A DNA stretch of 35,388 bases from Chitinophagaceae bacterium. GTDB taxonomy: Bacteria; Bacteroidota; Bacteroidia; Chitinophagales; Chitinophagaceae. Shown piece by piece: positions 7,353 to 22,786 of the stretch. The translations under genes were made by a program, and so were the position numbers. Location: contig SEAD01000040.1 in assembly GCA_004173355.1 (NCBI GenBank), positions 1-35,388 on the forward strand. Direction: 5' to 3'. The notes below the pieces were generated by a model that had not been told where the DNA came from, ran no database searches, and was given only the letters and a program-made list of their open reading frames with translations. Each line of letters begins with the position of its first letter. The first letter of the stretch is position 1.

Positions 7353-7434
7353 GCCCAGGTGGCGAAACTGGTAGACGCAGCAGACTCAAAATCTGCCGCC
7401 GCAAGGTGTATCGGTTCGATTCCGATCCTGGGCA
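7353..7434 (+). tRNA. tRNA-Leu, anticodon CAA
   Basis: The cloverleaf can be drawn completely: acceptor GCCCAGG pairs with CCTGGGC (7427-7433) with discriminator A. A D-arm GCG/CGC encloses AAACTGGTAGA, and the anticodon stem GCAGA/TCTGC has loop CTCAAAA giving CAA at 7387-7389. The variable arm is long (class II, as in leucine tRNAs), and the T-arm ATCGG/CCGAT encloses TTCGATT. CCA is not encoded. It reads leucine codon UUG. Confidence 0.97.
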
Positions 7435-7438
7435 CAGA

Positions 7439-9720: not shown

Positions 9721-10401
9721 TCAGGCCTTTTCATGCGAATACACCGCAAACAGCTTCCAGAACCGGCGAACGATTCCAAAATCAAAAGCATGTTTCTTAA
9801 AATCATTCAGCACGAGCTCAATCCGGGTGCCCGACACTTCATACTGGCCGATCATGATCTCCGGACCCGCGACATATAACCCGGGCTTGCCATCACAGAG
9901 ATGCACATTCTCACGGGTCAGTTCCTCAAACACCAGCACATCATTCATCCGGTAGTCGGGGAGCGACTGGTGATGGGGAATATTATTATTAAAGGAAACA
10001 CCCAACAAATTGTTGTTACTGGTTTCGGGTAAAACCAGCTTCGGGAAACCAGACACATCCTCAAAGGCCAGCTCATTCCGCACCCCACGCATAAAAACAT
10101 TGTCACTGATAAACGGAACCTCGCGCAACTGCAGGTTGATAATCCGGTTTTCATCCTCCAGCAACAAATCCCCCTCGTATTGCAGGACCTCATTTACAGA
10201 AAGCGTATCAGAAACAAATTTATTTAGCGGTATGCAAAAATAATTGGCAATTTTAATTACAGTTTCCAGCTTTGGCTCCGCCCTGTTTTCCTCATACGAG
10301 GAGATATTCCCCCTGGTCAACTCAAATAAATCAGCAAACGCCTGCTGGCTAAGGTTTTTAGCCGTTCTTATCTTTTTTATATTGGATCCTGTTCGCAGCA
10401 T
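9721..10401 (-). CDS. XRE-family regulator with S24/LexA-like C-terminal domain
   Basis: The protein has 226 residues. The N-terminal helix-turn-helix (about residues 6-62, core LSQQAFADLFELTRGNISSYE) is of the XRE/Cro-CI type. The C-terminal half (about 95-205) follows the CI/LexA S24 beta-fold pattern (DYRMNDVLVFEE, DGKPGLYVAG). However, where active repressors have a GDSM serine and a catalytic lysine, it reads SFNNN and MIGQYEV, so self-cleavage is unlikely and the domain probably serves dimerisation or sensing. It is transcribed away from the PspA-flotillin-ATPase gene set. Its -7 box TATATTTG (10452-10459 minus) abuts a palindrome, arguing for autoregulation and control of the neighbouring operon. 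Confidence 0.88.
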   Translation of the reverse strand: MLRTGSNIKKIRTAKNLSQQAFADLFELTRGNISSYEENRAEPKLETVIKIANYFCIPLNKFVSDTLSVNEVLQYEGDLLLEDENRIINLQLREVPFISDNVFMRGVRNELAFEDVSGFPKLVLPETSNNNLLGVSFNNNIPHHQSLPDYRMNDVLVFEELTRENVHLCDGKPGLYVAGPEIMIGQYEVSGTRIELVLNDFKKHAFDFGIVRRFWKLFAVYSHEKA

Positions 10402-10436
10402 AATGTTAAACGAAAGTGCAAATATTTTTACCCTAA

Positions 10437-10453
10437 TGCAAATATTATTTGCA
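10437..10453. promoter_or_regulatory. 17-bp palindromic operator candidate
   Basis: TGCAAATA and TATTTGCA form a perfect palindrome around one central T. A further TGCAAATA half-site lies at 10417-10424, and CCCTA/TAGGG repeats bracket the core. On the minus strand it touches the regulator gene's -7 box (TATATTTG). On the plus strand its TTTG (10448-10451) is 20 bases from a -7-like TAAATTCG (10472-10479), so a bound repressor could control both directions. Confidence 0.6.
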
Positions 10454-10499
10454 AATATAGGGTTTGTTCCCTAAATTCGTTTTAAAATAAACAATATCG

Positions 10500-10892
10500 A
10501 TGGATTTCATGTCCACCATACAGGATTTTGCCATTCAGGCCGGTTGCCGGATTGTCTATCGTAATGAACAGACGGGCATCCTCAAACTCGAGAGTGAGGA
10601 AGACGGCATCCATAACCTGATCATCGGCATCGCGCCCCCTATCCTCATCATGGAGCAATACCTTTTTACATTCCGCGAGGATAATGTGGGGATGTTCAAA
10701 CAACTGCTCCAGAAAAACCGCGACATGATCCATGGCGCCTTTGTGATCAATGAGGAAGGCAACAAGGTCCTGTTCCGGTACACTATGCAGCTCGAAAACA
10801 TCAATTTCAATGAATTTGATGGCGCCATCAATTCACTGGGCCTGATGCTGAGCGAATACTATCAACAAATCATTAATTTTTCAAAATTGTAG
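10500..10892 (+). CDS. YbjN / CesT-Tir chaperone-like small protein
   Basis: The protein has 130 residues without a signal peptide or membrane helix, so it is probably cytoplasmic. The alternating beta strands (CRIVYRNEQTGILKLESEE, HNLIIGIAPPILIMEQYLF, KVLFRYTMQLENI) followed by C-terminal helices resemble the YbjN/type III chaperone-like fold. This is an inference from pattern, not a recognised signature motif. It is the first gene of the set and ends four bases before pspA, so the two are almost certainly co-transcribed and translationally coupled. A role as partner or chaperone of PspA or of the large ATPase is plausible but unproven. A -7-like box TAAATTCG lies about 20 bases upstream. 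Confidence 0.7.
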   Translation: MDFMSTIQDFAIQAGCRIVYRNEQTGILKLESEEDGIHNLIIGIAPPILIMEQYLFTFREDNVGMFKQLLQKNRDMIHGAFVINEEGNKVLFRYTMQLENINFNEFDGAINSLGLMLSEYYQQIINFSKL

Positions 10893-10896
10893 TCTT

Positions 10897-11601
10897 ATGA
10901 ATCTTTTTAAACGAATCTTCCGGATCGGACAGGCGGAGATCCATGCTGCGGTTGAAAAAATGGAAGACCCGGTAAAAATGACCGAACAGGGTCTCCGGGA
11001 ATTACGGGATGATCTTGCCCAGGCCACCGAGGCTTATGCCCAGGTAAAAGCATTGGCAATCCGTACGGAAAACGAACAGGTTATCTGCCAGAAAGAATCG
11101 CTCAACTACGCCGAAAAAGCTATCTTGATCATGCAAAAGGCGCAGCACGGCGATGTGGAAATCAGCAAGGCTGAACAACTGGCAAGGGAAGCCCTGTCAC
11201 TCCGCCGGCAGTATTTTACCGATGCGGAAAACCTCGGTGTACAGGTGATTGCACACCAGCAGAGCTCACAGGAAATGCTGGGTAATATCAGCATCCTGAA
11301 AGAGAACCTGGTCAAGTGGGAAAGGGAACTGAAAACACTCAAGGCAAGGGTGAAAGTGAGCAAGGCCACACAGCAGGTGAACAAACAACTGGCGCAGATG
11401 GATACCAATGGCACTATCGCCATGCTGGAACGGATGAAGGAAAAAGTGGAAGACCAGGAAGCCCTGTCAAAAGCCTATGGTGAAATAGCAAGGGACAAAC
11501 ACACGTTGAAAGATGAACTGGACAAAGTGCTCAAAGACGATACATCGACGATTGAAAAAGATCTCGCCGCGATCAAGACCAAACTGGGCATGACCCCATA
11601 G
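10897..11601 (+). CDS. pspA: PspA/IM30 family protein
   Basis: PspA/Vipp1/IM30 proteins are ESCRT-III-like peripheral membrane proteins that assemble on stressed inner membranes and remodel them. The protein has 234 residues, nearly all helical. The N-terminus MNLFKRIFRIGQAEIHAAVE is the amphipathic membrane-binding helix, MEDPVKMTEQGLRELRDDL is the canonical start of the coiled-coil hairpin, and the rest is long coiled coil to about residue 225. It starts four bases after the YbjN-like gene and precedes an OB-fold membrane protein and a flotillin, an arrangement reported for PSP-type systems in other bacteria. No PspF-like regulator is adjacent; the divergent XRE protein probably takes that role. 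Confidence 0.95.
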   Translation: MNLFKRIFRIGQAEIHAAVEKMEDPVKMTEQGLRELRDDLAQATEAYAQVKALAIRTENEQVICQKESLNYAEKAILIMQKAQHGDVEISKAEQLAREALSLRRQYFTDAENLGVQVIAHQQSSQEMLGNISILKENLVKWERELKTLKARVKVSKATQQVNKQLAQMDTNGTIAMLERMKEKVEDQEALSKAYGEIARDKHTLKDELDKVLKDDTSTIEKDLAAIKTKLGMTP

Positions 11602-11641
11602 GTTCTTACCCAAAACCGGCAACCATTAAACCTTAACAGAA

Positions 11642-11656
11642 GTCCGCGCTGCGGAC
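11642..11656 (+). other. Small GC-rich hairpin between pspA and the yqiJ-like gene
   Basis: GTCCGC and GCGGAC pair perfectly around a three-base loop in the 76-base gap after pspA. There is no following T-tract, so it is not a standard terminator. It lies about 20 bases before a TTG start and could stabilise the pspA mRNA end or tune expression of the next gene. Confidence 0.35.
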
Positions 11657-11677
11657 CGCCACCAAAACATCCAACCA

Positions 11678-12361
11678 TTGAGCCTGACTGACCTGCTTTT
11701 CCATCCGCTCTCCAATGCCATCATGACCGTACTTACGGCTGTGACCGCGCTGTACTGGGTATTTTCCTTTGTCGCCGGCGACTTCCTGGGTGATATGGAT
11801 TTTGCCCCTGAAATCGATGGCGCCGTGGAAGTAGATACCTCGGCCGATATTGATGGCGGCGAATCAGGGGCAGAGCAGGGTTTTTTTTCGAAAGCACTCG
11901 AATTTGTCAACGTAGGCAAGGTTCCATTCATGATCGTCTACAGCATATTCAAGTTCATCGCCTGGATCATTACCCTTGGCAGTTCACTTATTTTCCACCT
12001 GGCCAACTGGGGATGGAAATCAGCACTGATCCTGATACCCGTATTTTTCATCGCGTTCCTGGCCACCCGGTTCGCTACAAAACCACTGGTTCGTATGTAC
12101 AAGACAATGGGATACAACGGAGAGGACTCGCATGACCTGATCGGACGGGTGGCCAAAATGCGCTCCGCCATCACCGGTGACAAAATCGGAGCGGCCGAGC
12201 TCCTGATCCGTAATGACCTCATCCGTATCAGCGTCAAGAGCAAAACCGGACAGCCTATCGAATACAATTCGGATGTGATGATCGCCGATGAATCCGTTGA
12301 CAAACGATATTATTACGTAGTACCTGAAATAACACTCGACAATATCCTGGCAAAGGGCTGA
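11678..12361 (+). CDS. YqiJ/NfeD-like OB-fold membrane protein
   Basis: This is an inner-membrane protein of 227 residues, partner of a downstream flotillin as in the E. coli YqiJ-YqiK pair. The N-terminus has a hydrophobic helix (AIMTVLTAVTALYWVFSFVAG), then an acidic stretch rich in D and E. Two more helices follow (PFMIVYSIFKFIAWIITL; SALILIPVFFIAFLATRFA), and a C-terminal beta-rich segment from about residue 145 (GRVAKMRSAI, AAELLIRNDLIRISVKSK) is consistent with an OB fold as in NfeD proteins. The start is TTG at 11678; the first internal ATG would cut into the first helix. NfeD-type proteins usually act with SPFH/flotillin scaffolds in membrane microdomains. Confidence 0.85.
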   Translation: MSLTDLLFHPLSNAIMTVLTAVTALYWVFSFVAGDFLGDMDFAPEIDGAVEVDTSADIDGGESGAEQGFFSKALEFVNVGKVPFMIVYSIFKFIAWIITLGSSLIFHLANWGWKSALILIPVFFIAFLATRFATKPLVRMYKTMGYNGEDSHDLIGRVAKMRSAITGDKIGAAELLIRNDLIRISVKSKTGQPIEYNSDVMIADESVDKRYYYVVPEITLDNILAKG

Positions 12362-12424
12362 CCTGAAACGCGCCCGGGAAAACAATTCCAGAACTGATTA
12401 CATAACCATCAACCCAACCTTACC

Positions 12425-14452
12425 ATGTTTGACGCTTTAGGAGGACTCACAGTCATTATCATCGGAAGCGTAGCCTTCCTTTTATTCATCATCCTGGCCG
12501 CATTCGCGACTTTCTATAAAAAGATCCCGCAGGGAAAAGCAATCGTACGCACAGGCGTGGGCGGTGGGAAGGTCGCATTCAACCAGGGTATGTACGTAAT
12601 CCCGATCCTCCACAAAATGGAGATCATGGATATTTCGGTGAAAAAACTGCAGATTAACCGGATGGAACAGGAAGGCCTGATCTGTAAAGACAATATCCGG
12701 GCAGATATCAAGGTGGCATTCTTTGTCCGTGTCAATAAAAGTGTAGACGATGTACTCAACGTGGCGCAGATCATCGGTACCGAACGTGCAAGTGATGGCG
12801 AGACACTCACCACCCTCTTCGAGGCAAAATTTTCGGAGGCCCTGAAAACGGTTGGAAAAAAATTCGACTTCATCGCCCTCTATGAAGCACGCCGGGAATT
12901 CCGCAACGAGATCCTCGATATCATCGGCACCGACCTGAATGGTTATATCCTCGACGACTGCGCAATTGACTACCTCGAACAGACAGAAATGAAATTCATG
13001 AGCCCGGGAAATATCCTCGACTCAGAAGGTATCCGCAAAATCACGGAACTGACTGCCGCCCAGAACATGAATGCCAACCTCATCCGCCGCGAGGAGGAAA
13101 AGGTGATAAAAAAACAGAACGTGGAAGCACGTGAAGCGATCCTCGAACTGGAACGCCAGCTGGCCGAAAAAGAAGAAAAACAAAAACGCGAGATCGAAAA
13201 CGTGAAGTCACGCGAGTACGCCGAAATCCTCAAAGTCCGCGAAGAGGAACGACTGAAATCCGAAACCGTACGGATCAAAACCGATGAAAGTCTCGCCGTA
13301 CAGGAAGAAAATAAACTGCGCCAGATCATCATCGCAGCCAAAAACAAACAGCGGACCGACGCAGTGGAAACAGAACGTGTGGAAAAAGACCGCGCACTCG
13401 AAGCCACTGAACGCGAAAAGATCGTAACCCTTGCCCAGATTGAAAAGGAACGCAATATAGAAGTCGAACGCAAAAATATCCAGGATGTGATCCGCGAAAG
13501 GGTGAAACTGGAAAAAGGGGTCACTGAAGAACAGCAGAACATGAAGGATATCGAATCTTTCCGTACCGCTGAACGCGACAAATCAGTAGGTATCACCGAC
13601 GCAAGCCGTGTCGCTGAAGAGAAACTCATTTACACAGTCAAAGCCGCCGAAGCAGAGAAAAAAGCCGCCGAAGAACGGGCGAAACAACTCGTGATCGACG
13701 CGGAGGCGAAAAAAGAAGCCGCCACCAAGGAAGCCGAAGCGCGCAAAGTACTTGCAGAAGCAACTGCCCGTGAGGAAGCAACAATTGGTCTCTCTGAAGC
13801 AGAAGTGATGATTGCAAAAGCGGAAGCGGCCGAACGGCAGGGTATGGTAGATGCTGGTATCGTTGAAAAAATGGCCGAAGCAAAACGGAAAGAAGGACTC
13901 GCCGAAGCGGAAGTGGTACGTGAGAAATCATTCGCCGAAGCCGCAGGCATCGAACAGAAAGCCGAAGCCATGAAGAAACTGGATGGGGTTGGCAAGGATC
14001 ACGAAGAGTTCAAACTCCTCCTGCAAAAAGACAAGGATATCGCACTCGCCCATATCAATGTCAACAAGGACATCGCGGTCGCGCAGGCCGATGTACTGGG
14101 TACTGCACTGAAGACGGCAAAAATTGATATCGTAGGTGGCGAAACCATGTTCTTCGAAAATATCGTGAAGCAGATCTCCAATGCCAAAGGATTTGACCGC
14201 CTGATCAACGAAAGCGAAAACGCAACAGCCATCAAAAACGCAATCCTCGATGGTGACGGCAACCCGCTGGAGAAAATCAGGACCTTTGCAGAGAAATACA
14301 ATATTTCCAGCAATGACCTTAAAAACCTGACCATCTCGGGCCTCCTGCTGAAGATGCAGGCCAACAGCTCAGAAGATGACCGCACCTCGCTGTTCGATCT
14401 GACCAGGATCGCCAACAGCCTTGGGTTGTCAAACAAGAAACTGAATTCCTAA
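12425..14452 (+). CDS. Flotillin family (SPFH/Band-7) protein, YqiK type
   Basis: Flotillins oligomerise on the inner membrane and organise functional microdomains. The protein has 675 residues, longer than E. coli YqiK. An N-terminal membrane helix lies at about 9-29 (VIIIGSVAFLLFIILAAFATF). The SPFH domain covers about 30-200 (QGKAIVRTGVGGGKVAFNQG, then KDNIRADIKVAFFVRV). A very long Glu/Lys/Ala-rich coiled coil runs from about 210 to 545 with the flotillin-type EA repeats (AEAAERQGM, KAEAMKKL). The C-terminal 130 residues are less repetitive. The gene follows the OB-fold protein by 63 bases and precedes the large ATPase by 75 bases on the same strand, so all belong to one functional set. 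Confidence 0.95.
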   Translation: MFDALGGLTVIIIGSVAFLLFIILAAFATFYKKIPQGKAIVRTGVGGGKVAFNQGMYVIPILHKMEIMDISVKKLQINRMEQEGLICKDNIRADIKVAFFVRVNKSVDDVLNVAQIIGTERASDGETLTTLFEAKFSEALKTVGKKFDFIALYEARREFRNEILDIIGTDLNGYILDDCAIDYLEQTEMKFMSPGNILDSEGIRKITELTAAQNMNANLIRREEEKVIKKQNVEAREAILELERQLAEKEEKQKREIENVKSREYAEILKVREEERLKSETVRIKTDESLAVQEENKLRQIIIAAKNKQRTDAVETERVEKDRALEATEREKIVTLAQIEKERNIEVERKNIQDVIRERVKLEKGVTEEQQNMKDIESFRTAERDKSVGITDASRVAEEKLIYTVKAAEAEKKAAEERAKQLVIDAEAKKEAATKEAEARKVLAEATAREEATIGLSEAEVMIAKAEAAERQGMVDAGIVEKMAEAKRKEGLAEAEVVREKSFAEAAGIEQKAEAMKKLDGVGKDHEEFKLLLQKDKDIALAHINVNKDIAVAQADVLGTALKTAKIDIVGGETMFFENIVKQISNAKGFDRLINESENATAIKNAILDGDGNPLEKIRTFAEKYNISSNDLKNLTISGLLLKMQANSSEDDRTSLFDLTRIANSLGLSNKKLNS

Positions 14453-14527
14453 CACGTGAAATAAACAGTAATACAGGTCGTAGTCCCCGTGACTGCGGCC
14501 GGTATTATCCGTTTCCCTTGTCAGTAT

Positions 14528-17500
14528 ATGGAAGTAAAACCTACAGGACAGGCTCCGGGACTGGATTCCGGCACTTATGGCATTATCAGGGGCCGGCTGG
14601 AAGAACAGCGGACCGATCTCGCGTCGCGACTGGCCAGACTCAATACCGCCCGTCATGAGATCTTCAGCTCGGGGGGATTTGAACTGATCGCCAACCAGCG
14701 CATCACCACCGAAAACCACGGCGTGGCGCGGGGACTGACCGCACTCGGGGACCTCTGCATCTTTGGCTATAATGTGCAGTTTGGCCTGAGGGAGGATATC
14801 CGCCTCAGTGATGTATTCAGTATCTACCGTTTCACCAGCGACCATTTCGATCCGCAGCCACTCACCCTGATCGAAGACCCGCAGTTCATCACCGACTTTA
14901 CCAATCTCTACAAGTACTACCGCGATTCGCTCTTTGCAAAATTCATCAGCAGCGGCACTTACCTGTACATGATCTTCCAAACCAGCAAAAACACCGACGA
15001 CCGTAAGGCGTTCAAATGGCTGGTGAAAAATAATACGCTGCAATATATCGACGACCGGAGCCTGCAGGAAGTAAACCGTGCACCGCAGTTCGACTTCCAG
15101 TGGACCCGCACCAGCCTGGAAGACCGCCGTCTCGGTGTACACCCGCATATTTCCATCCTCGATAAACTGTTTATCGAAGCGATCGGTGGCGATATCACAT
15201 TCAAGATAGAAAACAATACCGCAACAGGAAGGGGGATCTACCATGAGCCGGTGATGAACAAGGACCAGCAGCTGGATGATGCCGAATATTACTATGCGGA
15301 CCTCGGCAACCTGCTTGCCATCAAAATCAGGCCTTACCAGGAAGAGGCACGTGCTTATATCTACAACGTCCGCACACGTGAAGTGCAGCCCATCAAAACC
15401 TTGCTGGACGCAGGTATCCTGCTGCCTGATAACCAGGGCGTGATTTTTCCCAATGGATACTACCTGCAGAACGGCGAATACCGGATTTTTGAAACGGACC
15501 TGGCCGGACTTGAATTCGTGCGCAGCATCCCGTCTCCGAACGGTGAGGATTTTATGTATGTGTTTTACCATACCGGCATGAATACATACGTGCTCATGTC
15601 ATACAATATCATTTCACACCAGGTCGAAACGCCGATCACCTGCAACGGCTATACCGTTTTCCCCGATGGGAAACTGGTTTATTTCCGTTCGGAAAACGAA
15701 CCCGTGCGTCATCATCAGGTACAGATCTGGGAGACGCCCTACACCGCTGTGCTGCAGGAAAATACCGGCATGCAGGATAACGTGCTGTTCAAAATCGGCA
15801 ACAAGGATATCGTGAGCGCAATGTCGGAAAGCCATGAAATACTGCAGTTGCTCGGTAAGGAAGACTCCTTCTCGCGGTTGTATGAAGACATCAGCAAAAA
15901 AGCAAATGACCTGCTCGACTCCTATTTCTGGATCGCCGACGAAGCCACCTTCAACCTCGCCGCCCCACTGAAGCAGGTGCGCGATATTGCTGCCACCGCC
16001 ATCGACGAATTCGCCCGCGTGCAGGAGCAACGCCAGCATGCCCGCGACTCAATGGCTGCCATGCAGAAAAAAGTGGACCAGCTGGTAGTCGATATAAAAA
16101 ATGCTGTGATCGTGTCGCTGGACGAACTGGTGAAACTGCTCGCTTCGGTGCGCACCATGCAGGGAGCCGTGATCGATCTTGGCAATGTCAGGTACATTGA
16201 AAGTGCAGCCGTGACACAACTCGGCGAAACGCTCGACAAATACAATGGCGACCTCTCCCAGGATACCATCAACTTCCTGCTGAAGGAACAGTCGCTCCTG
16301 CCCTACGAACAAAAGGTCAGCGCACAGAAAGCCGCCGTGGCAAAGGTCACAAAAGTGATCGAGGCAAAGGACATCGATGCGGGCATCAATGGTATCGCGG
16401 GGGAACTCGAGATGCTGATCGATATCCTCAACAGCCTCAAAATTGAAGACAGTACACAAAGCACAGGGATCATCGAAAAGATCTCCCTCATTTTTGCCTC
16501 ACTCAATGAAGTAAAGGCCGACCTGATCCGCACCACTACTGCTCTGCGTGAAAAGGAAGCGGGGAGCGAGTTCCATGCACAACTCACCCTGCTGGAGCAG
16601 GGCGTGGTGAGTTTTCTCGACCTGTCCACCAGTCCCGATAAAGCAGAAAACTATTTCACCAAGGCCAGCGTGCAGGTGGAAGAACTGGAAAGCCGTTTCG
16701 CCGACTTCCCCGAGTTTGTGGTTAAAATAGCCGACAAACGGGATGAGATCATCCGCGCGTTCAATGTCAAAAAAGAAATGCTGGTTGCGGCGATCAACAA
16801 ACGCACCTCATCCATTGAGCAGATCGGTCTCCGTGTTTTAAAAAATATCGAAAACAAAGCTGCGTCTTTTGACAGCCGTGAACAGATCTATGCATTCTTC
16901 TCCGCCGACCTCATGATCGGCAAAGTGCGCAGCCTCGCGGCCGAGCTTGCCACACTCGGTGACGTGGCAAAAGCGGAAAACCTGGAAAACCTGCTTAAAC
17001 TCTCACAGGAAGAAGCAATCCGCACGCTGAAAGACAAAACCGAACTCTTTGTAGATGGACAGAATATCATTGCCCTGGGCGACCATAAGTTTGTGGTCAA
17101 CAAACAGGTGCTGGACCTCGGCATCGTGCGCCGTGAAAACAAACTTTTTTACCATCTCAGCGGTACAGGTTTTTATAAGGAAGTAAACGCAGAGGAACTA
17201 TACAGGCACAAAGAGGTCTGGGAACAGGAGATCATTTCAGAAAACAACCAGGTGTACCGTGGCGAATACCTGGCCTGGGATGCTTACCAGGCCGGCCTTT
17301 CGCAGCCGGCGGGCTGGGATGCTGCCGCTTATATAAACGAACGGGTCGAGCGGGATTATGCCGCCGGTTATCTCAAAGGTGTGCACAATACCGATGGGCT
17401 TGCCATTTACATCCAGCTGAAATCGCTTGCTGACGAACTGGGTATCCTGCGTTATCCTCCGGCAGTACGGGCTGCGGCACACCGTTTCTGGTTTGCACTG

Positions 17501-19375
17501 GATGAACCCACACGCCAGAAATTACAGCAACTGACCAGCGCGGCACAGTCCATCGAATCCAGTTTTCCCGGCAGCCGCCAGTACCAGTTTGTAACCGATG
17601 AAATCAAACGGCAGTTAAACGCCACTCCTTTGCTCACCACCCTCACCGCGTATCCCGGAGAGATCGCCGGGTACCTGTACCGCGAATTTTCCACCGCAAA
17701 AGTTTTCAGCGCCAGCCAGCAGGCAATAGCGATCAGGAAAGCATTCAATGATTTCCTGGTCCGTGGTAAAAAACTCGAACTCTTCCGCCAGGATACTGAG
17801 CATCCGGCATTCAGCATAGCTGAACGAGCCATGGTGATCGAGAACTGGGTGCATGCATTTACCATTCAATCCGGCACCAGCAGTTTTTATATTCCCGAAG
17901 TGGTTTCGCTCCTGCTTTTCCGCGATTATAATTTCCATGAACGTACAGCCGATGCACACCGGACGGTCACCGGCCTGAAAGGCACCCATCCCGTAATATA
18001 TGAACAGCAATACCAACTGGACTTCCATGCCTTCACGGAAAAAATGGCCGTATACCATGATACAGTGGTACCGGCGTTTACGGCGTTTAACCAGCTGAAA
18101 TCGAAATTATCCGCAGCCTACCGGACGCAACTCAAAATCAGTGAATTCGAACCAAAGGTGCTGAGTTCGTTTGTCCGTAACCGGCTGATTAACGAAGTAT
18201 ACTTCCCCCTCATCGGAACCAACCTCGCCAAACAGATCGGTAGTGCAGGTGATGATAAACGGACCTCCAGGATGGGGATGCTGCTGCTGATCTCACCTCC
18301 CGGTTATGGTAAGACAACGCTGATGGAATACCTGGCAAAAACCATGGGACTTCATTTTGTAAAGATCAATGGTCCGACCATCGGGCACAGCATTACTTCC
18401 ATCGACCCGGTGGAAGCGAGTACATCCGGTGCCAGGGAAGAACTGAAAAAAATCAACCTTGCGCTCGAAATGGCGGACAACGTGATGTTGTACCTCGACG
18501 ATATCCAGCACTGCGGTGCGGAGTTTCTCCAGAAATTTATTGCGCTTGCCGATGGCCAGCGGAAGATGGACGGAATTTTTGAAGGCGTCAGCCGCACCTA
18601 TGATCTCCGCGGCAAACGTTTCTGTATTGTAATGGCCGGCAACCCTTATACGGAAAGCGGCGAGCAGTTCAAGATCCCTGACATGCTGGCCAACAGGGCC
18701 GATGTGTATAACCTGGGTGACGTGATCGGGTCGACTGAACAATTGTTCAACCTCAGCCTCGTGGAAAATGCGGTAGCCGAAAACCGATACCTGCAACGCA
18801 TCACCAACAGGAGTTTTGATGACCTGTACAAACTGGTCAGCTATATCGAAACCAGTTCGGAGATGCTGCCTGCCCTCGAAGGAAACTATGCCGGCCAGGA
18901 AGTGGAAGATGCCATTGCGGTGCTGCGGCATATCATGGCCATCCGCAACCTCGTGGTCAGGGTCAACCAGCAATACATCGCGAGTGCCGCAATGAAAGAC
19001 CGCTACCGGACAGAACCCGCATTCAAACTGCAGGGATCTTACCGGAACATGAATAAAATGGTCGGAAAACTCGTGCCGCTGATGAATAGCGCGGAAGTAG
19101 ATACCCTGATGTTGTCCCATTACGAAGGCGAATCACAAACGCTCACTTCCGATGCCGAAGCAAACCTGCTCAAACTGAAAGAACTGATGGGTAACCAGGA
19201 CGCGAAGGAAAAGGAAAGATGGGAACAGATCAGGACAATTTTCCGGAAGAATAACCGCTTTGGCGGACTCGACGGGGCCGATACATCCGGACAGATGCTG
19301 GTGCAGCTGAGTAGTTTCAACGAACATCTTGAAGCCATCGCAGCCGCCATCAACCAGGCAAAAGGCAGTAAATGA
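14528..19375 (+). CDS. Very large AAA+ ATPase, DUF3686 type (annotated in databases as DNA repair ATPase)
   Basis: The protein has 1615 residues from ATG 14528 (a GTG at 14489 would add 13). The first ~420 residues are beta-rich with repeated short strand-turn units and match my recollection of the DUF3686 region. Residues ~440-860 are largely coiled coil. Residues ~1235-1480 form one AAA+ domain with Walker A PPGYGKTT (Lys1262), Walker B MLYLDDIQH (Asp1324/Asp1325) and a sensor-like MAGNPYTE. No signal peptide or membrane helix is evident, so it is probably cytoplasmic or membrane-associated through partners. The database name 'DNA repair ATPase' rests on weak similarity. Its fixed place after PspA, NfeD-like and flotillin genes suggests an AAA+ remodeller of the membrane assembly. 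The actual activity is unknown. Confidence 0.88.
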   Translation: MEVKPTGQAPGLDSGTYGIIRGRLEEQRTDLASRLARLNTARHEIFSSGGFELIANQRITTENHGVARGLTALGDLCIFGYNVQFGLREDIRLSDVFSIYRFTSDHFDPQPLTLIEDPQFITDFTNLYKYYRDSLFAKFISSGTYLYMIFQTSKNTDDRKAFKWLVKNNTLQYIDDRSLQEVNRAPQFDFQWTRTSLEDRRLGVHPHISILDKLFIEAIGGDITFKIENNTATGRGIYHEPVMNKDQQLDDAEYYYADLGNLLAIKIRPYQEEARAYIYNVRTREVQPIKTLLDAGILLPDNQGVIFPNGYYLQNGEYRIFETDLAGLEFVRSIPSPNGEDFMYVFYHTGMNTYVLMSYNIISHQVETPITCNGYTVFPDGKLVYFRSENEPVRHHQVQIWETPYTAVLQENTGMQDNVLFKIGNKDIVSAMSESHEILQLLGKEDSFSRLYEDISKKANDLLDSYFWIADEATFNLAAPLKQVRDIAATAIDEFARVQEQRQHARDSMAAMQKKVDQLVVDIKNAVIVSLDELVKLLASVRTMQGAVIDLGNVRYIESAAVTQLGETLDKYNGDLSQDTINFLLKEQSLLPYEQKVSAQKAAVAKVTKVIEAKDIDAGINGIAGELEMLIDILNSLKIEDSTQSTGIIEKISLIFASLNEVKADLIRTTTALREKEAGSEFHAQLTLLEQGVVSFLDLSTSPDKAENYFTKASVQVEELESRFADFPEFVVKIADKRDEIIRAFNVKKEMLVAAINKRTSSIEQIGLRVLKNIENKAASFDSREQIYAFFSADLMIGKVRSLAAELATLGDVAKAENLENLLKLSQEEAIRTLKDKTELFVDGQNIIALGDHKFVVNKQVLDLGIVRRENKLFYHLSGTGFYKEVNAEELYRHKEVWEQEIISENNQVYRGEYLAWDAYQAGLSQPAGWDAAAYINERVERDYAAGYLKGVHNTDGLAIYIQLKSLADELGILRYPPAVRAAAHRFWFALDEPTRQKLQQLTSAAQSIESSFPGSRQYQFVTDEIKRQLNATPLLTTLTAYPGEIAGYLYREFSTAKVFSASQQAIAIRKAFNDFLVRGKKLELFRQDTEHPAFSIAERAMVIENWVHAFTIQSGTSSFYIPEVVSLLLFRDYNFHERTADAHRTVTGLKGTHPVIYEQQYQLDFHAFTEKMAVYHDTVVPAFTAFNQLKSKLSAAYRTQLKISEFEPKVLSSFVRNRLINEVYFPLIGTNLAKQIGSAGDDKRTSRMGMLLLISPPGYGKTTLMEYLAKTMGLHFVKINGPTIGHSITSIDPVEASTSGAREELKKINLALEMADNVMLYLDDIQHCGAEFLQKFIALADGQRKMDGIFEGVSRTYDLRGKRFCIVMAGNPYTESGEQFKIPDMLANRADVYNLGDVIGSTEQLFNLSLVENAVAENRYLQRITNRSFDDLYKLVSYIETSSEMLPALEGNYAGQEVEDAIAVLRHIMAIRNLVVRVNQQYIASAAMKDRYRTEPAFKLQGSYRNMNKMVGKLVPLMNSAEVDTLMLSHYEGESQTLTSDAEANLLKLKELMGNQDAKEKERWEQIRTIFRKNNRFGGLDGADTSGQMLVQLSSFNEHLEAIAAAINQAKGSK

Positions 19376-20087: not shown

Positions 20088-21044
20088 TTACACCGCAGGG
20101 GGGATCGGCGTCTGGTCGTTGGACGGGACCGGCGCCGGTTCGTATACGTACTCCTCCTCTTTCTTTTTCCTGCCGGTAATAAAGCGCCAGATGGCGCCAC
20201 CAGCAAGGGCTATACCGAGAAAGATAAACTTTGCAAATTTTGCCAGCACTGCAAACAACCCAACTTTTGCAGCAAGTTTCCCTGCCACCAGGGTGCCAAC
20301 GGTCCATGCCGCAACATTATCCGTACCCGAATCAAAATCGCTGTAGCGGTTGCCTTTCGTAAAACTCCCGATAGCCAGTACATCATTCATATGGGCATTG
20401 ACACTGTCCAGTGAACCCATTGACGACACGGCCTGCATGATGAGTACCCCTTTGCGGCCAAGCACACGGATGTCATAGTTGAGCGTATTGTCCTCGGTTC
20501 CGTCGATTGAATATTCCTTCGCCCAGTGTAATACTTTTTTATCCTTGTCATAATAAGGCCTGGCTGCCCAGCCTACCAGGTGAAGCTGGTCAAGACCCAA
20601 TCTGGCCCGCTCCTTATTTTCTTCAACGTTGCTTTCCTTTAATTGCCTGAGCAGGTCATCATAGTCCATATCGGCTGCTTCGCCGTCCTTCACATAACCC
20701 ATCCCTTCATAAGTCACCACATATGCATAAGAAGAGAGTATCGCAAATTCATCAGCAGGCAGGATCAAACCGAGTACGGATGTACCGGAAGGAGGATTAC
20801 CCCAAAGGTCTTCCACTACCCGTTTCGCATCTTTCGCACCAAGGAATTTAAAATTTGAAGGGATGTCCATCAGGATCTCACCATTTTCCAGTGTCACCTT
20901 TCCGGTCTGGTAGTGCAGTGTTTTTTCAACAGAGTCGATCCTTGCAAGGTAAGCGGCAACTTCGGCGGTGGAGTCACCCGGTTCTTTTGCCAGCGCGGCA
21001 AAACCCAGCAGCAACATGCTGCAGAGCAGGAAGTAATGTTTCAT
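20088..21044 (-). CDS. DUF2167 family membrane-anchored protein
   Basis: The protein has 318 residues. It begins with a signal peptide (MKHYFLLCSMLLLGFAALA) and continues with a soluble domain in which GEILMDIPSNFKFLGAKDAKRVVEDLWGNPP (read in parts), YEGMGYVKD and WAARPYYDKDKKVLHWAKE are typical of DUF2167. Near the C-terminus one hydrophobic stretch (FAKFIFLGIALAGGAIW) is a membrane anchor, followed by a basic cluster GRKKKEEE and a Pro-rich tail. The bulk would face the periplasm with a short cytoplasmic tail. The function of the family is not established. It is divergent from the SusR-like gene and has its own terminator. Confidence 0.88.
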   Translation of the reverse strand: MKHYFLLCSMLLLGFAALAKEPGDSTAEVAAYLARIDSVEKTLHYQTGKVTLENGEILMDIPSNFKFLGAKDAKRVVEDLWGNPPSGTSVLGLILPADEFAILSSYAYVVTYEGMGYVKDGEAADMDYDDLLRQLKESNVEENKERARLGLDQLHLVGWAARPYYDKDKKVLHWAKEYSIDGTEDNTLNYDIRVLGRKGVLIMQAVSSMGSLDSVNAHMNDVLAIGSFTKGNRYSDFDSGTDNVAAWTVGTLVAGKLAAKVGLFAVLAKFAKFIFLGIALAGGAIWRFITGRKKKEEEYVYEPAPVPSNDQTPIPPAV

Positions 21045-21142: not shown

Positions 21143-22786
21143 ATGAAACGATCACTGATCTTATTTTTTTTCATCATACACAACTGCCTTCCGCTGAAAG
21201 CCGGGACTGACAGCCTCCTGCAACAACTGGCCGCTACCATGAAAAAATCAGCGACTTATGATGCGGCCAAGGAAAAACAGATCGCGGCACTGAAATCACA
21301 ATTGGCTTCGTACCCTCCCACACAGGCCGATGCAATCTTCCGTCTCACCAACCGCATTTATGCACAGTACCAGATCTTCAATTACGATTCAGCTTTCCGG
21401 TATGCGGGACAACTGGTACGCCTCTCCAATACTTCAGGTAATAATGACCAGCAGGTACAATCGCGTCTCAACATCAGTTTTATCCTTCTCTCGGCCGGTC
21501 TTTACAAGGAGACCTTCGATTCACTCAGTGCCCTGCGCCGCTATTCCATACCCGACTCCCTGAAAGCGGGATATTACAGTCTCTGGGGACGTTATTACTA
21601 TGATCTTGCGGGTTATGCCAATGACAGGTACCATTCGCTTGACTACGACACCATCGGTCACCGGTATATCGATTCCGCATTAAACTGGTTCCCCGCCGGA
21701 TCATTTGAACATGATTATTACACCGGTCTTATCAATTACAAAAAAGGGTTTATCGAAATCGCCTTCTCCTGGTTTACCAGGATCCTGCAACGCCCTGCAC
21801 TCAGTGACCATGAACTCGCACTCACCGCTTCCACCCTCAGCGGGATCTACCAGCAGAAAGGGAATACGGACGAATCGATCCGACTGCTGGTAGCGGCAAG
21901 TGAAGCAGATATCCGTTCCTCCACCAAGGAAACCGGTGCCATTTTCCACCTCGCCGAATTGCTGTATAAAAAAGGGGACCTCAAAAACGCAGCACTCTGC
22001 ATCGAAAACGGTATTGCCAATGCCGAATCATACGGGGCACGCCAGCGGAAAATCCAGGCCAGTTCGATCCTCCCGCTGATCGAAGGCGAACGCATCAACG
22101 GGATCGAGGCGCAGCGAAACCTGCTGTTCAGGTATGCGGCAATCGTCACCGCCCTGGTCCTCCTGCTGGCACTCCTGGGTTATATCATCCTCAAACAAAA
22201 CCGCAAACTTAAACGGACCCGGCAGGCGCTCACCGAAGCCAACGACCGGAAACAGGTGATCAACGAGGAACTCGCGCGCACCAATGCCGCCCTGCAGGTG
22301 GTCAATGAAAAAATGGAAGAGGCTAACAAGATCAAGGAGGAATACATTGGGTACTTCTTTGATATTGACTCTGCTTTTTTCGCGCGGCTGGATAAGATCA
22401 AACAGACTATTGACCAGAAACTGGCCGACCGCCGGTATGAGGACATCCGTTTTTTCCTCAATAAAATTGATGCAAAAAAAGAAAAACAGGACCTGCTCAG
22501 CAGCTTCGATAAAATCTTCCTGAAACTCTTCCCGCATTTTGTACAGGAAGTGAACGCACTGCTCCGTCCCGACGAACAGATCCGGCTGAAAGACCACGAG
22601 CTGCTCAACACCGACCTGCGCATCTTTGCGCTGATCCGGATGGGACTGACCGACACCGAAAAGATCGCCGGCATCCTCGAGTACTCGGTCAAGACAATCT
22701 ACAGCTACAAGTCAAAAATGAAACACCGTTCCTTCCTGCCCAGCGAGGAATTCGAGGAGCGGGTCATGCAGATTAAAACGCTCTGA
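21143..22786 (+). CDS. susR: SusR-like membrane regulator (TPR, DUF6377-type)
   Basis: This transmembrane transcription activator of the SusR kind senses maltooligosaccharides in the periplasm and turns on sus genes. The protein has 547 residues, the size of SusR. A signal sequence (MKRSLILFFFIIHNCLPLKA) precedes a helical TPR-like sensor region (about 25-315). One membrane helix lies at about 326-350 (YAAIVTALVLLLALLGYIIL), followed by a coiled coil (KRTRQALTEAND to NKIKEEY). The C-terminal DNA-binding region has a LuxR/sigma-like helix-turn-helix (TDTEKIAGILEYSVKTIYSYKSK in parts, about 493-525). It lies directly upstream of susC/D/E and an amylase gene on the same strand, so these are the likely targets. 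The symbol is by homology and context. Confidence 0.85.
   Translation: MKRSLILFFFIIHNCLPLKAGTDSLLQQLAATMKKSATYDAAKEKQIAALKSQLASYPPTQADAIFRLTNRIYAQYQIFNYDSAFRYAGQLVRLSNTSGNNDQQVQSRLNISFILLSAGLYKETFDSLSALRRYSIPDSLKAGYYSLWGRYYYDLAGYANDRYHSLDYDTIGHRYIDSALNWFPAGSFEHDYYTGLINYKKGFIEIAFSWFTRILQRPALSDHELALTASTLSGIYQQKGNTDESIRLLVAASEADIRSSTKETGAIFHLAELLYKKGDLKNAALCIENGIANAESYGARQRKIQASSILPLIEGERINGIEAQRNLLFRYAAIVTALVLLLALLGYIILKQNRKLKRTRQALTEANDRKQVINEELARTNAALQVVNEKMEEANKIKEEYIGYFFDIDSAFFARLDKIKQTIDQKLADRRYEDIRFFLNKIDAKKEKQDLLSSFDKIFLKLFPHFVQEVNALLRPDEQIRLKDHELLNTDLRIFALIRMGLTDTEKIAGILEYSVKTIYSYKSKMKHRSFLPSEEFEERVMQIKTL

What the first reader, a model, noticed from the sequence alone, without database searches (positions are those of the whole stretch)
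9721..19375. PspA - OB-fold membrane protein - flotillin - giant AAA+ ATPase cassette with a dedicated divergent regulator
Six genes form a coherent unit: an XRE/S24-like regulator, then on the other strand a YbjN/CesT-like protein, PspA, a YqiJ/NfeD-like protein, a flotillin and a 1615-residue AAA+ protein. Seen: gene order, 4-base gap to pspA, common strand, family motifs. Known: PspA remodels membranes like ESCRT-III, and flotillin/NfeD pairs organise microdomains. Inferred: the AAA+ protein acts on PspA or flotillin polymers as Vps4 acts on ESCRT-III, making this a membrane-repair machine without PspF, PspB or PspC.
Basis: partly seen in the sequence, partly recalled or inferred. Interest (0 to 1): 0.82.

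Follow-up and report, generated by a model that had tools for sequence, protein, structure and literature searches.

The report
Known flotillin–PspA operon, new operator
This is a bacterial membrane-stress gene set that was described in 2024; the new parts are a dedicated regulator with conserved DNA sites, and signs that its large ATPase belongs first to flotillin rather than to PspA.

Summary
The six genes are real and in the order described. The cassette is in print: Ravi et al. 2024 (PMC11237479, passages) describe CesT/Tir–PspA with YqiJ, a band-7/flotillin protein and an AAA+ ATPase behind a coiled coil and β-propeller. What I add: (1) The divergent XRE regulator belongs to it: present in 31 of 31 named loci with cesT–pspA, in 1 of 30 without. 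(2) The regulator–cesT gap holds an inverted repeat, GCWAA-N5-TTWGC, exact in 27 of 42 gaps against 0.14 expected; window site 10438-10452. (3) The ATPase's constant neighbour is flotillin (60 of 61 loci), not PspA (31 of 61); in 13 of 30 genomes without PspA at the cassette no PspA was found at all. (4) The modelled AAA+ module has a hairpin before sensor 1 and fits MoxR-type ATPases (CbbQ, NorQ) best, although by sequence Pfam's AAA model scores highest. Most likely: a repressor-controlled flotillin/NfeD scaffold with its own remodelling ATPase, to which Bacteroidota joined a PspA–CesT arm. No step of the mechanism is shown by experiment here. 'Vps4 for PspA' is weakened, not excluded.

The parts
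9721..10401 (-). Divergent regulator: XRE helix-turn-helix, C-terminal part S24/LexA-like in homologues
   Evidence: HTH_3 1.7e-11; HTH shared by 43 cassette regulators, L013 and L045 being the same contig; Peptidase_S24 over its cut-off in L065, below it in L032, L034 and L086, not matched in L013 or the window protein
10348..10362 (.). Exact GCWAA-N5-TTWGC site inside the regulator gene
   Evidence: not exact at this place in the same-genus homologue L014
10418..10432 (.). One-mismatch copy of the repeat
10438..10452 (.). Predicted operator, exact GCWAA-N5-TTWGC inverted repeat (17-mer 10437-10453)
   Evidence: one of two exact 17-mers in the genome; the other lies inside a 1181-codon frame
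10500..10892 (+). CesT/Tir-like protein, 130 aa
   Evidence: CesT_Tir_1 4e-44
10897..11601 (+). PspA/IM30 protein, 234 aa
   Evidence: PspA_IM30 1.1e-38; the only PspA match in the genome
11678..12361 (+). YqiJ/NfeD2-like membrane protein (TTG start)
   Evidence: YqiJ_N 22.6 bits, cut-off 23; alignment of 16 homologues
12425..14452 (+). Flotillin (SPFH protein), 675 aa
   Evidence: Band_7 7.8e-12 on the N-terminal part; Band_7 also found here by the genome search
14528..19375 (+). DUF3686 AAA+ ATPase, 1615 aa from ATG (1628 aa from GTG at 14489)
   Evidence: DUF3686 4.7e-163, DUF7902 8.3e-23, AAA 1.6e-8
14669..15739 (+). β-propeller of the ATPase (residues about 48-404), after a coiled-coil helix
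   Evidence: Model pLDDT 90.3, pTM 0.88; WD40-type matches, modest: Z 8.5, rmsd 5.8, 224 aligned
18155..19195 (+). AAA+ module (residues about 1210-1556): Walker A PPGYGKTT, Walker B LYLDDIQH, hairpin before the sensor-1 strand
   Evidence: Model pLDDT 83.9, pTM 0.69; CbbQ Z 17.5, rmsd 3.7, 253 aligned; many invariant residues in 33 sequences

Best explanation
A Bacteroidota member of the published CesT/Tir–PspA–YqiJ–flotillin–AAA+ operon class. Shown here: gene content and order, their conservation, the co-occurrence of the regulator with the CesT–PspA pair, a conserved inverted repeat in the control region, and models of a MoxR/dynein-like AAA+ module and a β-propeller. Inferred: YqiJ and flotillin build a membrane scaffold or cage; the ATPase docks by its propeller and remodels that scaffold or clients held in it; PspA, kept in check by the CesT-like protein, is a membrane-binding polymer that in Bacteroidota was joined to the scaffold to patch or reshape stressed membrane. 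The regulator is taken to be a repressor that binds GCWAA-N5-TTWGC before cesT and often again inside its own gene. Its S24-like part mostly lacks the catalytic Ser, so release should come from a signal or a partner rather than from self-cleavage.
For: Same order in 10 of 10 cassettes. Of 61 named loci with at least 6 kb upstream: 31 full set, 25 YqiJ+flotillin+ATPase only, flotillin in 60. Regulator with cesT–pspA 31 of 31 against 1 of 30 (Fisher 1.4e-16, rows related). The PspA label needs 4 changes on a 70-row ATPase tree, shuffled mean 22.7. Repeat. Folds. Published relative in P. aeruginosa: bacA-bacF gave RT-PCR products across each junction, and a bacA transposon mutant had the five partner proteins 6.1- to 13.5-fold up (passages); BacB is PspA-like; PA14_16160 is called a short NfeD and PA14_16180 an SPFH protein; BacA–BacB is predicted to interact.
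Against: No binding, expression or phenotype data here. In P. aeruginosa, deleting single or multiple paFlo genes gave no pronounced phenotype, and bacA there has a putative sigma-54 site, not this operator. Pfam's AAA model scores above AAA_5 (35.5 against 25.9 bits) and the PDB sequence matches near the P-loop are Rix7 and VCP-like. No VWA partner, usual for MoxR ATPases (recalled), among the proteins scanned. 9 of 42 loci lack the exact repeat within 350 nt of the regulator start. PspA is not adjacent in 3 of the 16 Bacteroidota genomes with the ATPase found. ATPase and PspA are still associated across the class: 8 of 8 against 21 of 239.
Confidence: 0.6

Rival explanations
1. One reading: the ATPase works on PspA polymers as Vps4 works on ESCRT-III, and flotillin/YqiJ only mark the place.
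For: pspA is in the cassette in 31 of 61 loci; 8 of 8 ATPase-bearing genomes in a class sample of 247 have PspA, against 21 of 239 without the ATPase; Pfam's AAA model is the best sequence match of the module; Ravi et al. suggest ESCRT-like roles.
Against: ATPase with flotillin but no PspA in several phyla; 13 of 30 such genomes have no PspA match (many of them MAGs); hairpin before sensor 1 and MoxR-type best fold matches; no MIT match.
Confidence: 0.15
2. The operon is an assembly aid: flotillin, CesT-like protein and ATPase together chaperone other membrane complexes, and no member of the cassette is the substrate.
For: MoxR-type fold, a group known for complex maturation (recalled); Ravi et al. 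propose chaperone-like roles; a PMC13086221 passage says S. aureus FloA stabilises unfolded proteins.
Against: No constant client gene: the genes between flotillin and ATPase in 18 loci are mostly unrelated to one another; flanks beyond the cassette were not compared systematically.
Confidence: 0.2
3. DNA-repair ATPase, as the Pfam and NCBI names say.
For: Names only.
Against: Neighbours are membrane proteins in 60 of 61 loci.
Confidence: 0.03

Closest known systems
CesT/Tir–PspA operon with band-7/flotillin, YqiJ and AAA+ (Ravi et al. 2024, PMC11237479; passages seen)
   Same: The five + strand genes and the AAA+ architecture (coiled coil, β-propeller, AAA+); short operons with YqiJ, flotillin and in some cases the ATPase are described there too.
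   Different: The words XRE, LexA, S24 and MoxR do not occur in its main text, and the two uses of cHTH concern Actinobacteria. Figures and supplements were not seen, so a regulator may be drawn there.
P. aeruginosa bacABCDEF (Wallart et al. 2024, PMC10948618; passages seen)
   Same: CesT-like (YjfI), PspA, NfeD and SPFH genes in the same order, co-transcribed.
   Different: DUF2170-type CesT, putative sigma-54 promoter; the passages do not say what BacE and BacF are.
Classical PspF–PspABC
   Same: PspA.
   Different: No PspB, PspC or PspF among the ten proteins scanned at the locus.
SPFH2–NfeD2 pairs YqiK–YqiJ and YuaG–YuaF (PMC2636767, passages)
   Same: Flotillin next to a YqiJ-type NfeD protein.
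   Different: No giant ATPase; the words PspA and ATPase do not occur in that text.
MoxR AAA+ ATPases CbbQ and NorQ
   Same: Best fold matches of the AAA+ module.
   Different: Giant protein with β-propeller; no VWA partner found.

Membership tests
CesT/Tir–PspA–YqiJ–flotillin–AAA+ operon (Ravi 2024) | Adjacent CesT/Tir and PspA genes | tested here: met
[quoted passage not shown]
   Band_7 7.8e-12; 46-90% identity to 19 aligned homologues (49% lowest). Transmembrane segment and coiled coil judged by eye
CesT/Tir–PspA–YqiJ–flotillin–AAA+ operon (Ravi 2024) | AAA+ with N-terminal coiled coil and β-propeller | tested here: met
CesT/Tir–PspA–YqiJ–flotillin–AAA+ operon (Ravi 2024) | YqiJ/YuaF-type 3TM protein | tested here: inconclusive
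   YqiJ_N 22.6 bits, cut-off 23; place and alignment fit; TM segments not computed
Vps4 / classic AAA clade | No pre-sensor-1 hairpin, second region of homology (features recalled) | tested here: not met
   Hairpin at model residues 506-511/514-519 before the sensor-1 strand 525-531; the usual second region of homology not seen by eye. Against: Pfam AAA is the best sequence match
Vps4 / classic AAA clade | N-terminal MIT domain | tested here: not met
   No MIT match up to E 0.1; N-terminal 490 residues model as coiled coil, β-propeller and helices
MoxR AAA+ | MoxR-type AAA+ fold | tested here: met
   CbbQ Z 17.5, NorQ Z 17.2, dynein 15.3; fold only, identity 11-14%
MoxR AAA+ | VWA-domain partner encoded nearby (recalled) | tested here: not met
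   No VWA match among the ten proteins scanned; other genes of the window were not scanned
Self-cleaving S24/LexA repressors | Catalytic Ser and Lys (columns recalled) | tested here: not met
   Ser in 1 of 35 rows with a residue in that column (L018), Lys in 0 of 42; in 14 rows a Lys lies one position later, so the Lys reading depends on the alignment. The window row has neither
Classical Psp (PspF–PspABC) | PspB, PspC or PspF at the locus | tested here: not met
   None among the ten proteins scanned; no PspB in the genome; PspC domains only elsewhere

The most novel reading that the evidence does not exclude
The DUF3686 protein is a bacterial AAA+ machine dedicated to flotillin/NfeD scaffolds and spread over many phyla. 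In Bacteroidota a PspA–CesT arm was added together with its own, mostly non-cleaving XRE/S24-like repressor, which acts at conserved operators before cesT and often inside its own gene; the added set is later lost whole or in part.
Probability: 0.35. Interest if true: 0.72.

Novelty: new member of a known kind. Interest (0 to 1): 0.45.

Why it matters
For SPFH proteins of the HflK/C and YbbK kinds a partner AAA+ protease, FtsH, is reported (passages); for the flotillin/YqiJ pair a dedicated ATPase beside it in 60 of 61 loci gives a concrete candidate motor. The predicted operator gives a direct handle: bind it, remove it, and find what signal opens the PspA branch. The question moves from 'Vps4 for PspA' to 'what does the ATPase do to flotillin'.

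Tried and rejected
Vps4 analogy: tested by clade features and co-occurrence; membership not met, working likeness kept as a rival. No Vps4 row is among the 50 rows shown, but a missing row proves nothing. DNA-repair name: no support in the neighbourhood. Full-length flotillin: no Pfam match, one sub-threshold NCBIfam match at E 0.076, no PDB sequence match; the N-terminal part alone gave Band_7. β-propeller profile against PDB sequences: 0 matches. Profile of the regulators' C-terminal part (21 of 43 rows): LexA best, only at E 0.16. PADLOC: HTH-type rows for the regulator, otherwise nothing below E 0.004. 'PspA in Bacteroidia occurs only with this ATPase' looked true in the phylum sample (8 of 8 over the cut-off in the class) but failed in the class sample, where 21 of 239 ATPase-free genomes have PspA. 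Seventh core gene: the gaps over 300 bases between flotillin and ATPase in 18 loci hold mostly unrelated frames; four pairs are alike (L016–L065, L026–L069, L033–L097 and a duplication in L037). Regulon beyond the cassette: exact 17-mers in nine other genomes number 0-5, the reversed-pattern control 1-4, so no wider regulon is visible; imperfect sites were not counted. Papers: DUF3686, 0; other searches.
Full report
What is there. Six genes lie at 9721-19375 as described. Pfam names the regulator's HTH, CesT_Tir_1 (4e-44), PspA_IM30 (1.1e-38), a near-threshold YqiJ_N, and in the ATPase DUF3686 (4.7e-163), DUF7902 and AAA. The flotillin is seen by Pfam only when its N-terminal 262 residues are scanned alone, Band_7 7.8e-12. 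The genome has one PspA match, two Band_7 matches, no PspB match and one frame with two PspC domains elsewhere, besides a third match below the cut-off.

Conservation near home. DUF3686 is uncommon: 4 of 59 genomes in the relatives sample, 8 of 296 in the phylum sample and 8 of 247 in the class sample, the window's genome counted in each. The samples overlap and together hold 16 genomes with the ATPase. PspA lies close by in 13: eleven from the cassettes read (the window) and G425 and G585 by position only. In G376, G448 and G555, all of one family, it lies elsewhere. The ten other cassettes read whole (L013-L022) have all six genes in this order with the regulator divergent; in L014 the cesT frame found covers only its second half.

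Wider sample. Sixteen have under 6 kb upstream of the ATPase and three gave no ATPase frame; these 19 were set aside, leaving 61 (matches of 40 bits or more). Of 61: full set 31; YqiJ+flotillin 25; flotillin only 3; regulator+YqiJ+flotillin 1 (L040, Chryseobacterium aahli); none 1 (L074). Flotillin is there in 60, YqiJ in 57, PspA in 31. The profiles were built from Bacteroidota, so distant CesT types would be missed. All 31 full sets are Bacteroidota by their record titles. The loci without cesT–pspA are Planctomycetota, Verrucomicrobiota, Bacillota, Kiritimatiellota, Thermodesulfobacteriota and some Bacteroidota. On a quick tree of 70 ATPase modules the PspA label needs 4 changes, against 22.7 in shuffles; the tree does not tell gain from loss. 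Five plasmid records out of 12 hits were opened. Hymenobacter DG25B reads 'LexA family regulator', 'molecular chaperone Tir', PspA, DUF1449, hypothetical, 'DNA repair ATPase'. A Streptomyces record has flotillin and ATPase with no PspA annotated in the stretch. Plasmid pQBR103 has a long operon YjfI–PspA–…–SPFH–ATPase. The Deinococcus neighbours are annotated as hypothetical and the Vibrio stretch has no annotation.

Is PspA needed? In the 30 genomes whose cassette lacks pspA, 17 have a PspA match at E 0.001 or better, 14 of them over the cut-off, and 13 have none. Many are MAGs, so absence is not proof. In the class sample ATPase and PspA remain associated: 8 of 8 against 21 of 239 (Fisher 1.4e-8, which ignores kinship). 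So flotillin is the constant partner and PspA a frequent one.

Regulator. The 43 cassette regulators collected (L013 and L045 being one contig) share a closely similar HTH but not the C-terminal part. Peptidase_S24 is over its cut-off in L065 (33.6 bits, cut-off 23.3), below it in L032, L034 and L086, and not matched in L013 or the window protein. In the alignment the catalytic Ser column holds Ser in 1 of 35 rows with a residue there (L018) and mostly Glu or Ile; the Lys column holds Lys in 0 of 42, but in 14 rows a Lys lies one position later. So self-cleavage looks unlikely, most firmly for the Ser. The regulator is present in 31 of 31 loci with cesT–pspA and in 1 of 30 without.

Operator. 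The regulator–cesT gap holds GCWAA-N5-TTWGC, exact in 27 of 42 regions against a resampled mean of 0.14 (maximum 2); with one mismatch 32 of 42 against 2.2 (maximum 8). Of spacers 0-12, spacer 5 gives 27 regions, 11 gives 1, 12 gives 2 and the rest none. Measured over 350 nt from the regulator start, it is exact in 33 of 42 loci, and also in the window; of the nine misses L013 and L045 are one contig. Three of the misses, the Hymenobacter clade (L016, L065, L068), have GCTCA-N5-TGAGC, changed on both sides. L040, without cesT–pspA, keeps an exact site. Control: 28 loci without PspA, 420 bases around the yqiJ (or flotillin) start, 1 hit in 11,760 bp. The window's genome has two exact 17-mers, the cassette site and one inside a 1181-codon frame. 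Eight of nine other genomes have one at the cassette, with totals near the reversed-pattern control.

Sites in the regulator gene. 25 of 43 regulator genes hold an exact repeat, against 0.24 expected; L084's lies in an over-long annotated start, leaving 24. Other cassette genes have 4 in 703,989 bp. Many of these sites spell the conserved residues ANYFS, so protein conservation explains part. But the Ser codon there is AGC in 19 of 20 (13% in other cassette genes), while three other conserved Ser positions have AGC in 15 of 37, 0 of 23 and 2 of 15. Related rows make the formal P value too strong. In the Chryseobacterium-type genes the site lies elsewhere (327). The window's own in-gene site (10348-10362) is not exact in L014, so it is weakly supported.

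ATPase. The C-terminal 775 residues with 33 sequences give pLDDT 83.9 and pTM 0.69, with a hairpin (506-511, 514-519) between the helix after Walker B and the sensor-1 strand 525-531. VIA-align: CbbQ Z 17.5 (rmsd 3.7, 253 aligned), NorQ 17.2, dynein 15.3, Rea1 14.3. Foldseek's top rows are RuvB, MCM and NorQ, with low query TM-scores. Against this, Pfam's AAA scores above AAA_5, and PDB sequence matches are Rix7 and VCP-like around the P-loop. The N-terminal 490 residues model as coiled coil plus β-propeller (pLDDT 90.3, pTM 0.88); the matches are WD40-type but modest (Z 8.5, rmsd 5.8).

Prior art. Ravi et al. 2024 describe this operon and its short forms and propose ESCRT-like, chaperone-like roles (passages). 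Popp et al. 2022 note band-7, NfeD and HTH genes near pspA in several phyla (passages). The P. aeruginosa bac operon is a studied relative (passages). In the main texts of Ravi and Popp the words XRE and LexA do not occur; figures and supplements were not seen, and the paper library is partial.

Judgement. A member of a published system, with a regulatory layer that I did not find described and a better-supported partner for the ATPase. The mechanism remains inference.

Noticed in passing
L040:6012-9712: Chryseobacterium aahli has no cesT–pspA match at the cassette but keeps the regulator and an exact operator.
   Followed up: partly
L055:9866-19828: In a Gimesia MAG the DUF3686 ATPase frame runs on to 3320 aa; the long C-terminal part has no Pfam match up to E 1.
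   Followed up: no
L013:9769-10320: Extra 183-aa frame, weakly Band_7-like (E 0.078), between yqiJ and flotillin in a Sphingobacteriales MAG.
   Followed up: no
L030:9986-14833: Dysgonomonas capnocytophagoides: the ATPase is split over two frames; regulator, cesT and pspA not found at the locus.
   Followed up: no
L160 (plasmid pQBR103): Merged long operon joining YjfI–PspA–DUF2491–DUF350–DUF1190–glutathionylspermidine synthase to SPFH and the ATPase.
   Followed up: no
window 10458-10473: Terminator-like hairpin on the + strand between the operator and cesT; could be leader attenuation or chance.
   Followed up: no
window 20088-21044 and 21143-22786: DUF2167 (2.6e-81) and DUF6377 (1.6e-81) proteins downstream of the cassette.
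   Followed up: no
window 7353-7435: tRNA-Leu (caa) upstream of the cassette.
   Followed up: no
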